This document shows positions 2-25,084 of a stretch of DNA of 25,084 nt, piece after piece. How positions within the stretch are numbered: position 1 is the first letter of the stretch; every line of letters begins with the position of its first letter. The stretch comes from a virus. The notes beneath the pieces are model-generated. The model worked only from the letters and a program-made list of their open reading frames with translations, was not told the DNA's origin and searched no databases. The DNA lies in IMG/VR virus record IMGVR_UViG_3300025132_000271, positions 1 through 25,084 of that record, one strand, 5' to 3'. The translations under genes were made by a program, and so were the position numbers.

Positions 2-754
2 TTAACAATCATCGATGATAAAAAGCTTCAGTTTGGCACTAACACAGACGCTTATATCTCTTATAGAGAAACGTCAGATGATTTTATGGTTATCTCTGGA
101 TCCTCAAAGGGAATTGTATTATCAGGCTCTACTATTCAAATTGCTGGAACTCTCGAAGGCGCCTCGCCGCTTAAAATTGGCGGCGAACTACAATTTGTCG
201 GCACCGGAGCAAACACTGGAATTAATTTAGGTCCAAATAAAGAAGCCAAACTTTTTTATGAGAGTACAGGAACAAACGCCTTAGTAATCTCTGGTTCTCA
301 TAACGGAACACACATGTCTGGATCCTTGGTAACAATTGATGGAAAATTAGGTGTTGGCGTCTATGGTGCCGATGTCACTGATGGCATCACATTGCCTAAT
401 ACTAATACGCAGGCTGGCCAAATCAAAGCTAGCTCCTACCTGTCATATTCTTCTCGACGATATAAAAAAGATATTAAAAAATTAGAAAATCCCTTAGAAA
501 TAATTAATTCTCTTGAAGGTGTCTCTTATGAATGGAAAAATTCGGGAGCAAAAGATTTTGGATTTATCGCAGAAGATGTTGGTCAAATTCTTCCTGGTAT
601 TGTACAGTGGGAAGACAACGGAAAGGATGCTACTGGCATAGACTATAGTAGAATCGTGCCTTATCTAGTTGAAGCTGTGAAAGAGCAGCAGATCCAAATA
701 GAAAAGTTAAATCAACAACTTATAAATAGATCTGAAGATACTGAAAAGAAATAA
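2..754 (+). CDS. Tail fibre protein with C-terminal peptidase S74 chaperone domain (5' partial)
   Basis: The frame is open from base 2, so the gene begins upstream of the window; the first in-frame ATG, at 86, is probably internal. The visible N-terminal part is rich in Gly/Ser/Thr with recurring SGS segments, as in beta-structured fibre shafts. The last ~100 residues match the peptidase S74 / intramolecular chaperone domain: the SSRRYKKDI start (Ser at 449, Lys five residues later at 464, the spacing of the family's Ser-Lys dyad), then GFIAEDVG, then GIDYSRIVPYLVEAVKEQQ and a short terminal coiled coil. In this family the domain trimerises the fibre and then cuts itself off. The usual SDxR start is SSRR here. 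It lies just upstream of a second S74 protein, which suggests paired fibre or receptor-binding components. Confidence 0.85.
   Translation, partial: LTIIDDKKLQFGTNTDAYISYRETSDDFMVISGSSKGIVLSGSTIQIAGTLEGASPLKIGGELQFVGTGANTGINLGPNKEAKLFYESTGTNALVISGSHNGTHMSGSLVTIDGKLGVGVYGADVTDGITLPNTNTQAGQIKASSYLSYSSRRYKKDIKKLENPLEIINSLEGVSYEWKNSGAKDFGFIAEDVGQILPGIVQWEDNGKDATGIDYSRIVPYLVEAVKEQQIQIEKLNQQLINRSEDTEKK
721..728 (+). promoter_or_regulatory. Exact T4-type late promoter octamer TATAAATA (may be coincidental)
   Basis: This matches the T4 late -10 octamer. It sits inside the last codons of the upstream fibre gene, about 145 bases before the next start codon. A related CATAAATA lies at 844-851, nearer the fibre start. 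In AT-rich DNA such octamers arise by chance, so this is only a candidate. Confidence 0.2.
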
Positions 755-22495: not shown

Positions 22496-23089
22496 ATGCC
22501 ATCGAATTTTTGGAATAATCCAACTGTAGAGCCGAAAAGAGCTTTTAGATTTTTACTTTCAATTTCTACCTTCGCGGAAGGAAATTGGCTAGTTAAGACA
22601 GCAGATAGACCTAAAGCTAGTGTATCCTCTGTACCACACCAGTACTTAAACCATACTTTTAACTATCCCGGTCGTTTAGTTTGGAATCCTGTTTCCATTA
22701 CGATGGTTGACCCCGGCGATTCTTTTGTTGATACAACAAAAACTGTTAGAGATTTTTACGAGATTGCTGGATATAGAAATCCTGCTGCTGGTGATGGCCA
22801 ACAAAGAGCTGCTTCTGCTTTAATTAAGCAAAAAGCAACAGGTGGCTCTTTGGGCAAAGTCTTTATTAGAACTTTAAATTCATCTGCCGGCACAGGCGCA
22901 ACCGATCTTGGTGCTTCGACTTATCAAGACGAATGGACTCTGCATAATGCTTTTGTCCAGGGTGATATTGATTTCGGATCTTTAGATTACGGCAGCGAAG
23001 AGTTGTTAACTATCACTTTCAGTCTCCAGTACGACTGGGCAACTCTTGATAAGGCCGGCACGTCTGGTCACAAAGATAGAAAAAAATAA
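22496..23089 (+). CDS. 19: Tail tube protein (T4 gp19-like)
   Basis: Stacked rings of this protein form the inner tube. The 197-residue product (T4 gp19 163) has the usual pattern: FWNNPTVEPKRAFRFLLSI, VKTADRPKASVSS, HTFNYPGRLVWNPVSITMVDP, DEWTLHNAFVQGDIDFGSLDYGSEELLTITFSLQYDWA, ending in a short basic tail. AGGAGA at 22482-22487 lies eight bases before the ATG. It follows the sheath after 54 bases and precedes the gp26-like gene by 15, so the three probably share a transcript. Confidence 0.93.
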   Translation: MPSNFWNNPTVEPKRAFRFLLSISTFAEGNWLVKTADRPKASVSSVPHQYLNHTFNYPGRLVWNPVSITMVDPGDSFVDTTKTVRDFYEIAGYRNPAAGDGQQRAASALIKQKATGGSLGKVFIRTLNSSAGTGATDLGASTYQDEWTLHNAFVQGDIDFGSLDYGSEELLTITFSLQYDWATLDKAGTSGHKDRKK

Positions 23090-23104: not shown

Positions 23105-23962
23105 ATGACAACTAGAGATAATAGCGCTCGCTTTGCAGCGCCAACTCCAAATGTCCAACCTGAGCCTGAAGAAGAAAACCAAAATGCAGCTTCCGTTCCT
23201 GGAGGTCTGCATTTTGTTGCTCCAACTGAACTAGTTGAGCTTCCCTCTAAGGGTCTTCTTTATCCGGAAGGACATCCACTTCACAACCAAGAAGAAATTG
23301 AAATTAAATTAATGACAGCCAAAGAAGAAGATATTTTGGTTAACAAATCACTTTTGAAAAAAGGTGTTGCGTTGGACAGAATGTTACAGGCAATTATTGT
23401 CAACAAGAGAATTAAATTAGATGATCTTTTGGTGAGTGACAAAAATGCAATTATAATCGCGGCTAGAGTTTCAGCGTATGGTGCTGACTATAAAGCTAGT
23501 GTGAATTGTCCAAGCTGTGGATTAGCTAGTAATTATGAGTTTGATTTAGAAGACAAAGAATTGAAATACCTTTACGAACATAATAGAGAAGATGTTCGTA
23601 CCGCTGAAAGTGGTAATTTCTTAGTTACCCTTCCGAAAACCAATGTAGAGGTGGAGTTTAGGCTTCTGCTAGGCAGAGATGAGAAGAGGCTCTTAGAGTC
23701 CAATAAGAAGAACAAGGGTGTTATTCCGCTGACACAGCAATTCAAAACATTCATTGTTTCAGCTAATGGATCTCCTGACAGAGAACTCATTTCACGTTTT
23801 GTCGATGTTATGCCGGCATATGATTCTAAGTTTCTAAGACTTGCATATGCAGATGTACTTCCAGCTGTTAATTTAGAACAGTATTTTGAATGTTCCGAGT
23901 GTGACCATTCCCAAGAGATGGAGGTGCCCTTTACTGTGGAATTTTTTTGGCCTAGATCATAA
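23105..23962 (+). CDS. 26: gp26-like baseplate hub / tail-assembly protein with zinc-ribbon pairs (zero-frame product)
   Basis: The 285-residue product resembles T4-type baseplate hub (gp26-like) proteins: a Pro/Glu-rich lead, then LVELPSKGLLYPEGHPL (44-60), IEIKLMTAKEEDIL, and two CxxC pairs (CPSC 135-138; CSEC 263-266) that may bind zinc. It ends EVPFTVEFFWPRS. The stop interrupts what looks like a longer protein: the +1 frame continues directly as DHNYQKAVYEQAF and on to 24134. Position between tube and tape-measure candidate is that of tail-assembly chaperones in other tailed phages. AGGA lies four bases before the ATG. Family call moderate; gene certain. Confidence 0.8.
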   Translation: MTTRDNSARFAAPTPNVQPEPEEENQNAASVPGGLHFVAPTELVELPSKGLLYPEGHPLHNQEEIEIKLMTAKEEDILVNKSLLKKGVALDRMLQAIIVNKRIKLDDLLVSDKNAIIIAARVSAYGADYKASVNCPSCGLASNYEFDLEDKELKYLYEHNREDVRTAESGNFLVTLPKTNVEVEFRLLLGRDEKRLLESNKKNKGVIPLTQQFKTFIVSANGSPDRELISRFVDVMPAYDSKFLRLAYADVLPAVNLEQYFECSECDHSQEMEVPFTVEFFWPRS

Positions 23963-24134
23963 CTACCAGAAAGCAGTATACGAACAAGCCTTCGCCTTAA
24001 AATATCACGGTAATTGGAGCTTTATTGAAGTCTATAGTTTACCTGTTGGTCTTCGAAACTGGTTCATTGAGAGGCTAAAACAGCAAAAAGAATTCGAAGA
24101 AGAAGAAATGGAAAAAGCCAAGAAGGGGCGGTAA
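23886..24134 (+). CDS. C-terminal extension of the gp26-like protein, probably read by +1 frameshift
   Basis: Within this ORF only the part from about 23955 looks like real protein: DHNYQKAVYEQAF, KYHGNWSFIEVYSLPVGLRN, then a Lys/Glu helix. The first 23 codons from the only in-frame ATG (23886) merely overlap the zinc-ribbon end of the preceding gene out of frame, and that ATG has no good ribosome binding site. No other usual start codon precedes the conserved-looking part. The simplest reading is a +1 shift near TTTTTTTGGCCT, giving a 342-residue fusion. A separate protein started at 23886, or a homopolymer sequencing error, remain alternatives. Confidence 0.6.
   Translation: MNVPSVTIPKRWRCPLLWNFFGLDHNYQKAVYEQAFALKYHGNWSFIEVYSLPVGLRNWFIERLKQQKEFEEEEMEKAKKGR
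23942..23956 (+). other. Candidate +1 frameshift site
   Basis: The run of seven T (942-948) is read TTT TTT T in the zero frame. A Phe tRNA on 945-947 could move +1 onto 946-948 with full re-pairing, giving FFGLDHNYQ. A shift after CCT (951-953), skipping A954, would give FFWPDHNYQ. An internal GGAGGT (23920-23925) lies 15-25 bases upstream, a placement that can stimulate shifting in bacteria. Confidence 0.5.
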
Positions 24135-24203: not shown

Positions 24204-24512
24204 ATGGAACCTATTGTAATTGACTTAGAAGAGTATAAAATTCTAAAAGAAATGACTTATCGTGCTTTCGGAATGAAAATGAAAAATATTCTAGGGGCAA
24301 TGTTTGGCAACCAGAAAGCTTCGTTGACTGTCAAAGGTTCAAAGAGAGAAGTAGATAGTTTTTTGACCGCTCTTGCTAGCGAAAAAAAATATATGACTGC
24401 TTATCTTGCTCATGGCTTAAGCGATCCTCGTACTCTTAGCAATAAGGCTAAACTAAGCAATTCTGTTAAGAAATTCGAAAGAGAAACCGGCATTAAATGG
24501 CCTTTTAAATAG
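24204..24512 (+). CDS. Small protein between tail-assembly and tape-measure genes, unknown
   Basis: The 102-residue soluble protein has an acidic start (MEPIVIDLEEYKILKEMTYRAF), a Lys-rich middle (TVKGSKREVDSFLTALASEKKYMTAYLAHGL) and a basic end (KKFERETGIKWPFK). AGAGGA at 24190-24195 precedes the ATG. It has its own promoter-like motif and ends 11 bases before the tape-measure candidate, so both probably belong to one unit. No domain is recognised; a tail-assembly role is inferred only from place. Confidence 0.8.
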   Translation: MEPIVIDLEEYKILKEMTYRAFGMKMKNILGAMFGNQKASLTVKGSKREVDSFLTALASEKKYMTAYLAHGLSDPRTLSNKAKLSNSVKKFERETGIKWPFK

Positions 24513-24523
24513 AGGGTTAATGA

Positions 24524-25084
24524 ATGGCAGAAACAACAGAAGAAATTCTAGCTAAAAATGAAGCGTTAGCAAAACTAGTTGCAACTCGCGAGAAAGATCT
24601 AGAAATATTAAAGAAACTAGATGCGATAGGCAAAAGCCGCACAACAGCTTTGCAAAGAGAAGTAGAATTTTACGCTGAACAGACTAAACTCTATAGAGAA
24701 AGCGCCGTCGCCGTTCAGGCTCTTGTCGAAGCAGAAAAACAAATGCTTGAAGCTTCAAATGGTGTTCTTCAAGAAGAGGAACTTCGAGTAAACATACAAG
24801 AGAAATTAAAGTCTCAGCTAGCAGAACTCACAAGTAAGACTACAGAGCAAACCAAAGCAGAAAAAGAAAAAATAGCTCAGCTGCATCTTTCAATTGAAGC
24901 ACTTGCTGACACGTCAGCCAGCGTTGATGATGTTGTTGATGGATTAGGCAGATTGGGTGATGGCTCTTCCCACTTATATAAAGCCAAGGACGCTGCAGAT
25001 AAGCTTGGTGATCAGTTCAATGAAACCGCAAGCAATCTATTAAGCATCAACAATAATTGGAATGAAGGTAGCTTGACTGGCCGA
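24524..25084 (+). CDS. Tape-measure-like coiled-coil tail protein (3' partial)
   Basis: The frame is open for 187 codons to the window end. The start ATG at 24524 has AGAGGG (24511-24516) seven bases upstream. The visible part begins MAETTEEILAKNEALAKLVA and is almost entirely long helix and coiled coil rich in Glu/Lys/Ala/Gln up to about residue 130, then DTSASVDDVVDGLGRLGDGS and further helical segments. Tape-measure proteins are long helical rods inside the tail tube that set tail length. This position, after the tube and assembly genes, is where one is expected. Only part is visible, so a baseplate hub or other helical tail protein is also possible. Confidence 0.65.
   Translation, partial: MAETTEEILAKNEALAKLVATREKDLEILKKLDAIGKSRTTALQREVEFYAEQTKLYRESAVAVQALVEAEKQMLEASNGVLQEEELRVNIQEKLKSQLAELTSKTTEQTKAEKEKIAQLHLSIEALADTSASVDDVVDGLGRLGDGSSHLYKAKDAADKLGDQFNETASNLLSINNNWNEGSLTGR

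What the first reader, a model, noticed from the sequence alone, without database searches (positions are those of the whole stretch)
23920..24134. Apparent +1 frameshift in the gp26-like gene, at the classical tail-chaperone position
Seen: the zero frame ends EFFWPRS-stop at 23962, while the +1 frame continues without a plausible start as DHNYQKAVYEQAF...KYHGNWSFIEVYSLPVGLRN to 24134. The junction has seven T residues, a CCT_AGA step, and GGAGGT 15-25 bases upstream. Known: in many tailed phages the genes between tube and tape measure make a short product and a frameshifted longer one (lambda G/GT; Xu, Hendrix and Duda described the wide conservation), mostly by -1 shifts. Inference: this T4-like phage may use a +1 shift to make 285- and 342-residue forms, linking gp26-type proteins to G/GT chaperones. 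The main rival is an indel in the T run, since six T would give one continuous ORF.
Basis: partly seen in the sequence, partly recalled or inferred. Interest (0 to 1): 0.8.

Follow-up and report, generated by a model that had tools for sequence, protein, structure and literature searches.

The report
+1 ribosomal frameshift in tail chaperone
In a large group of T4-related phages, ribosomes appear to skip one base at a run of Ts near the end of a tail-assembly chaperone gene, so that one gene yields a short and a long chaperone; the arrangement is conserved in about a hundred relatives and is not a sequencing error.

Summary
The gp26-like ORF (23105-23962, Pfam T4_baseplate) ends EFFWPRS-stop. 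The conserved continuation (GLDHNYQ...to 24134) lies in the +1 frame. All 80 viral contigs found with the 3' part (51-92% identity) repeat this layout: a 0-frame stop 12 or 15 nt after the slip codon, never one continuous ORF. The slip sequence is TTT-TTT-TGG (64), TTC-TTT-TGG (16) or TTT-CTT-TGG (1). The next +1 codons are synonymous Gly-Leu in 80 of 81, so the slip is at UUU_U, before CCT_AGA. Short-run variants rule out an indel and disfavour a -2 shift and RNA-polymerase slippage. An SD-like GGAGGT, 18 or 24-25 nt upstream, is selected. Homologues in cyanophages, KVP40 and jumbo phages reach a homologous 3' part by a -1 shift at T_TTT_TTY; T4 encodes two genes (26, 51). The model's best PDB match is the HK97 tail assembly chaperone. 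That T4-like phages carry such chaperones was published (Vladimirov 2022, not readable here). What appears new is the wide conservation of +1 shifting and the change of direction at one homologous Phe-Phe site. No protein or frameshift assay was possible.

The parts
23105..23962 (+). gp26-like gene, short form (285 aa; TAC-N / 'G' part), Pfam T4_baseplate
   Evidence: ORF; PF12322 E 3e-13, 50.3 bits against cut-off 24.5; phrog_150 baseplate hub E 3e-17
23920..23926 (+). SD-like GGAGGTG 18 nt upstream of the slip codon
   Evidence: a 6-nt or longer anti-SD match is present in 80/81 loci against 32% in synonymous shuffles and 6.5% elsewhere in the same genes
23942..23950 (+). slip sequence TTT TTT TGG (F280 F281 W282); P-site UUU 23945-23947 re-pairs to UUU 23946-23948
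   Evidence: invariant core with TTC TTT TGG and TTT CTT TGG variants
23960..23962 (+). 0-frame stop TAA ending the short form, 15 nt after the slip codon
   Evidence: stop 12 or 15 nt after the slip codon in 81/81
23949..24134 (+). +1-frame 'T' part: 61 residues plus stop, giving a 342-residue long form
   Evidence: three-helix domain in the AlphaFold model, residues 285-341
22496..23089 (+). tail tube protein (upstream neighbour)
   Evidence: phrog_4542 tail tube E 8e-18
24204..24512 (+). small conserved ORF (102 aa) between the chaperone and the tape-measure candidate
   Evidence: counterparts of 104-106 aa in two relatives
24524..25084 (+). start of the tape-measure candidate (runs off the window)
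   Evidence: 665- and 841-aa ORFs at this position in two relatives; annotated tape measure in immuto and LIS04

Best explanation
The gp26-like gene is a tail assembly chaperone gene of G/GT kind that makes two proteins by programmed +1 ribosomal frameshifting. Most ribosomes stop at 23962 and make the 285-residue short form. A fraction pauses with tRNA-Phe on UUU (23945-23947) and UGG in the A site; the tRNA re-pairs one base forward on UUU (23946-23948), and translation goes on in the +1 frame (GGC CTA GAT...), adding a three-helix domain behind a flexible linker (342-residue long form). By analogy with lambda gpG/gpGT, the short part would coat the tape measure and the added domain would recruit tail-tube subunits. 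Shown by comparison: frame relation, site, coding selection, SD-like element, homology of the added domain across phages. Inferred: that the fusion is made, at what ratio, and what it binds.
For: 81/81 loci with the same stop and +1 ORF. Slip variants UUU_UGG, CUU_UGG and, in more distant phages, UUU_C and UUU_UUC all allow forward re-pairing. Gly-Leu codons right after the slip vary synonymously in the +1 frame while the 0-frame residue changes among P/S/T/A/V. dN/dS about 0.08 in the added part. SD-like element under selection. No start codon ahead of the added domain in 34/81. Independent occurrence in Mel-JY01, immuto, RM378, SP-15, GXN1 and 18 phage-like loci in MAG contigs. Position between tube and tape measure. 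Added domain homologous to the -1-accessed parts of cyanophages and jumbo phages (hhalign 96.5% and 96.6%, column-shuffled controls at most 2.3%). Best PDB match of the model is HK97 tail assembly chaperone 2OB9, Z 5.8 against 2.6 for the next entry.
Against: No proteomic or reporter evidence. No conserved RNA structure. The SD-like element lies 18 or 24-25 nt upstream, not the 3 nt known for prfB, so its role is unclear. In LIS04 and LR756508 the exact slip site is not evident. A structural Z under 8 is not proof of common descent.
Confidence: 0.9

Rival explanations
1. Sequencing or assembly error in the T homopolymer: the gene is really one continuous ORF.
For: Homopolymer indels are common; six T would join the frames.
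Against: None of 80 other contigs has the joined ORF; 16 have TTCTTTTGG and one TTTCTTTGG, without a seven-T run; the 0-frame stop distance is fixed at 12 or 15 nt.
Confidence: 0.01
2. The +1 frame is reached by a -2 ribosomal shift, as described for phage Mu, giving FFFGL.
For: -2 and +1 reach the same frame; with seven T a -2 slip can re-pair on UUU.
Against: TTC TTT TGG (16 loci), TTC TTT CGG, TTC TTT CAT and TTC TTT CGT would need pairing on UCU, while +1 re-pairing is possible in all of these.
Confidence: 0.04
3. RNA polymerase slippage on the T run makes mixed mRNAs.
For: Homopolymer T runs can slip.
Against: The run is only four T in 16 loci and three in L083 and immuto; seven is already short for this (own knowledge); a selected SD-like element is a translational signal.
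Confidence: 0.02
4. The 3' part is a separate protein started internally, with the conserved GGAGGT as its Shine-Dalgarno.
For: GGAGGT is conserved upstream; the window has a TTG at 23886 and a CTG about 8 nt after GGAGGT in the +1 frame.
Against: 34/81 loci have no ATG/GTG/TTG before the conserved domain; the CTG is CTA or ATT in near relatives; spacing varies (18 or 24-25 nt); conservation runs through the junction.
Confidence: 0.03

Closest known systems
Lambda gpG/gpGT and related siphophage/P2-type tail assembly chaperones (Xu, Hendrix and Duda; Atkins 2016 review PMC5009743)
   Same: Chaperone gene between tube and tape measure; short form plus frameshifted long form; stop shortly after the slip; top structural match is the HK97 tail assembly chaperone 2OB9.
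   Different: +1 at UUU_U rather than -1; different sequence family (T4_baseplate); longer N-terminal protein.
T4-like tail assembly chaperones gp26/gp51 (Vladimirov, Gautam and Davidson 2022, Virology 566:9-15)
   Same: Same Pfam family; gp51 has a C-terminal extension homologous to the shifted part (clear against cyanophage parts 96.6%, weak directly against this clade 8.9%, score above shuffles).
   Different: T4 encodes short and long forms as two genes; here one gene with a +1 shift.
-1 polyT shift in gp26-like genes of cyanophages, KVP40, HTVC008M and Rak2-like jumbo phages
   Same: Homologous short protein, homologous added domain, shift at the same C-terminal Phe-Phe codons.
   Different: T_TTT_TTC or T_TTT_TTT heptamer and -1 direction.
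HSTV-2 (haloarchaeal myovirus) tail chaperone, likely +1 (PMC5009743)
   Same: +1 direction in a tail chaperone.
   Different: Not compared here; sequence relation unknown.
prfB CUU_UGA +1 frameshift
   Same: Forward P-site re-pairing; L083 and immuto use CUU_U.
   Different: No stop codon in the A site (UGG instead); SD-like element 18-25 nt, not 3 nt, upstream.

Membership tests
G/GT-type tail assembly chaperone made by programmed frameshift | gene lies between tail tube and tape measure | tested here: met
   tube upstream; tape-measure candidates one small ORF downstream
G/GT-type tail assembly chaperone made by programmed frameshift | short ORF plus conserved out-of-frame extension without its own start | tested here: met
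   81/81 loci, 34/81 without any start before the domain
G/GT-type tail assembly chaperone made by programmed frameshift | slippery sequence allowing tRNA re-pairing | tested here: met
   UUU_U, CUU_U, UUU_C; two distant phages unclear
G/GT-type tail assembly chaperone made by programmed frameshift | fold of the N-terminal chaperone domain | tested here: inconclusive
   HK97 2OB9 is the best PDB chain, Z 5.8, rmsd 4.0, 83 residues aligned of 107, next entry Z 2.6; Z is below 8
Lambda G/GT in the narrow sense (-1 shift) | -1 direction as in lambda | tested here: not met
   +1 frame; -1 does not define the wider kind, since HSTV-2 is thought to be +1 (PMC5009743)
G/GT-type tail assembly chaperone made by programmed frameshift | both products made in a fixed ratio, absent from virions, bind tape measure and tube protein | not testable with these tools
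   needs mass spectrometry or reporters
Pfam PF12322 T4_baseplate | score above the curated cut-off | tested here: met
   50.3 bits against 24.5
Pfam PF20546 DUF6760 (shifted part) | score above the curated cut-off | tested here: not met
   15.1 bits for the window, best relative 24.3 (E 3e-5) against cut-off 27: a distant resemblance only
prfB-type +1 frameshift | stop codon in the A site and SD about 3 nt upstream | tested here: not met
   UGG in the A site; SD-like element 18 or 24-25 nt upstream

The most novel reading that the evidence does not exclude
One homologous chaperone gene family keeps the same C-terminal Phe-Phe codon pair as its slip site but has switched shift direction (-1 and +1) between phage lineages, with T4 replacing the shift by gene duplication; and the same short/long logic reaches bacterial contractile injection systems, where DUF6760 overlaps a T4_baseplate-like gene in the -1 frame at a near-invariant GGGGGAATC.
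Probability: 0.35. Interest if true: 0.82.

Novelty: new variant of a known kind. Interest (0 to 1): 0.62.

Why it matters
A 2016 review still named T4 as the exception to conserved G-T frameshifting. T4-like chaperones have since been identified, but a conserved +1 shift in this family does not appear in the papers I could read. It gives a natural series (-1, +1, two genes) for one homologous protein pair, a simple +1 signal (UUU_UGG without stop codon or RNA structure) with an unusually placed SD-like element to test, and a rule for annotating long chaperones that current records miss.

Tried and rejected
RNA structure around the site: no conserved pairs and mean z about -0.4. CCT_AGA as slip site: rejected because Gly-Leu codons upstream of it are already selected in the +1 frame. 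Close tblastn relatives of the 0-frame protein in named phages: only 12 records at <60% identity, but useful as distant tests. Direct profile comparison of this clade's added part with the T4 gp51 C-terminus is weak (8.9%); the link goes through the cyanophage parts. Foldseek alone gave no significant PDB match. DUF6760 search in a third phylum sample: only the phage-like locus itself. Two papers not held: Vladimirov 2022 and the haloarchaeal virus paper PMC3592136.

Full report
Observation. The window carries a T4-like tail module: sheath, tube (22496-23089), gp26-like gene (23105-23962), a small ORF and a coiled-coil tape-measure candidate. The gp26-like gene scores 50.3 bits against Pfam T4_baseplate (cut-off 24.5). 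Its 0 frame ends EFFWPRS-TAA at 23962 and the +1 frame runs to 24134. Seven T lie at 23942-23948 and GGAGGTG at 23920-23926. All described features are present.

Conservation. A scan of viral contigs for the 3' part returned 80 loci of 51-92% identity. In every one, as in the window, a 0-frame ORF (274 or more open codons in all but L042, whose contig starts inside it) ends 12 or 15 nt after the slip codon and the 3' part lies in the +1 frame. None has a single continuous ORF. Slip contexts are TTT TTT TGG (64), TTC TTT TGG (16) and TTT CTT TGG (1). The two +1 codons that follow are Gly-Leu in 80 of 81 with synonymous changes (GGT, GGC, GGA, GGG; CTA, CTC, CTG, TTA), while the overlapping 0-frame residue after Trp changes among P, S, T, A and V. 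So +1 reading starts at or before GG, which places the slip at UUU_U and not at CCT_AGA.

Coding test. In 56 non-redundant loci the 3' part shows entropy 0.68, 0.39, 1.34 by +1 codon position, median NG86 dN/dS about 0.08 (pairs with usable dS), and 2 or more stops in the 0 frame and 1 or more in the -1 frame in every locus.

Direction. TTC TTT TGG speaks against a -2 slip (it would pair on UCU) and, with L083 and immuto (CUU_UGG), removes the long T run that polymerase slippage or a homopolymer error needs. More distant relatives support the same rule: Mel-JY01 and RM378 have TTT TTT TGG, SP-15 TTT TTT CAC, GXN1 TTC TTT CGT. Among 18 phage-like loci in GTDB contigs 14 have TTT TTT TGG, L137 has TTT TTT TTC, L141 TTC TTT CGG, and L143/L144 TTC TTT CAT. 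In all of these P-site UUU or CUU can re-pair on UUU or UUC one base on. LIS04 and LR756508 have a +1 extension whose slip point is not evident.

Signals. An anti-SD match of 6 nt or more lies upstream in 80 of 81 loci, 18, 19, 24 or 25 nt before the slip codon, against 32% in synonymous shuffles (maximum 44%) and 6.5% elsewhere in the same genes. The same GGAGGT at 18-25 nt recurs in several distant loci (L126, L128-L130, L132, L135, L140, L143). The loci are related, so these percentages are not independent trials. The spacing differs from prfB, so I call it a candidate stimulator of unknown mode. No conserved RNA structure was found.

Relatives that shift the other way. S-PM2, HTVC008M and KVP40 have one gp26 gene whose -1 frame carries a similar extension at T_TTT_TTC or T_TTT_TTT. 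All 80 viral contigs returned for the S-PM2 extension (the best of more than 580) have it in the -1 frame with T_TTT_TTC. Nine jumbo phages (XacN1, CM1, Phosso, PA5oct, Atu_ph07, XaC1, 121Q, CBB, GAP32) do likewise. Profile comparison joins the extensions: +1 clade with cyanophage set 96.5%, with jumbo set 96.6%; cyanophage set with T4 gp51 C-termini 96.6%; column-shuffled controls stay at or below 8%. PHROG 634 (baseplate hub assembly catalyst, the gp51 group) matches the S-PM2 extension at E 5e-31. T4 gp26 and gp51 are both PF12322, and gp51 alone has the extension. This agrees with Vladimirov, Gautam and Davidson 2022, which I could not read; PMC10885494 and PMC12846349 report from it that some T4-like phages carry one short and one long gene and that polyT -1 signals occur in T4-like chaperone genes. 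These points are therefore not claimed as new.

Structure. AlphaFold2 on the 342-residue long form (51 rows; mean pLDDT 81, pTM 0.69) gives a three-helix domain at 285-341 joined by a low-confidence linker 271-283 that spans the frameshift point. The best PDB chain on the second look is HK97 tail assembly chaperone 2OB9 (Z 5.8, rmsd 4.0, 83 residues, model 30-125), the next entry Z 2.6; Foldseek alone listed it third without significance. This supports, but does not prove, kinship with G-type chaperones.

Verdict. A +1 programmed frameshift is by far the best explanation (0.9). The proposed division of labour of the two forms is inferred from lambda. New variant of a known kind: the kind (frameshifted tail chaperones) and the T4-like members are known, and a +1 case has been suggested for HSTV-2 (PMC5009743); the breadth of the +1 clade, its UUU_U/UUU_C/CUU_U rule and the direction change at a homologous Phe-Phe site were not found in the papers held here.

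Noticed in passing
L227-L237, L242, L245 (bacterial genomes, Actinomycetota and Bacteroidota): DUF6760 genes overlap a T4_baseplate-like ORF (C-terminus ...GGRLGES) in the -1 frame, with near-invariant GGGGGAATC in 11 loci (GGGGCGATC in L233, L236); L233, L236 and L245 have no ATG/GTG/TTG before the domain. Possibly a -1 shift in bacterial contractile injection systems, but most have a GTG or ATG overlapping the stop, so coupled initiation is not excluded.
   Followed up: partly
L007 (LR756511, huge phage): Here the counterpart of the shifted part seems to be a separate gene with its own ATG overlapping the upstream stop (TAATG), a third way to supply the domain.
   Followed up: no
L102, L098, L105, L002, L004: Public annotations call the shifted parts separate hypothetical genes or leave them out; none of the records read shows a joined CDS here.
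   Followed up: partly
window 24204-24512: A small ORF ending ...TGIKWPFK lies between the chaperone and the tape-measure candidate and is conserved in relatives (G001, G004); function unknown.
   Followed up: no
window 2-754 and 874-2961: Two ORFs end in similar regions (SYSSRRYKKDIKKLENPLEII..., TYSDRTLKTNIQTMDTALEKV...) that look like the C-terminal self-cleaving chaperone of tail spikes and fibres; the second carries many repeats of the kind TAGTVAASKAVVVDANKDASGFRN (own reading, not searched).
   Followed up: no
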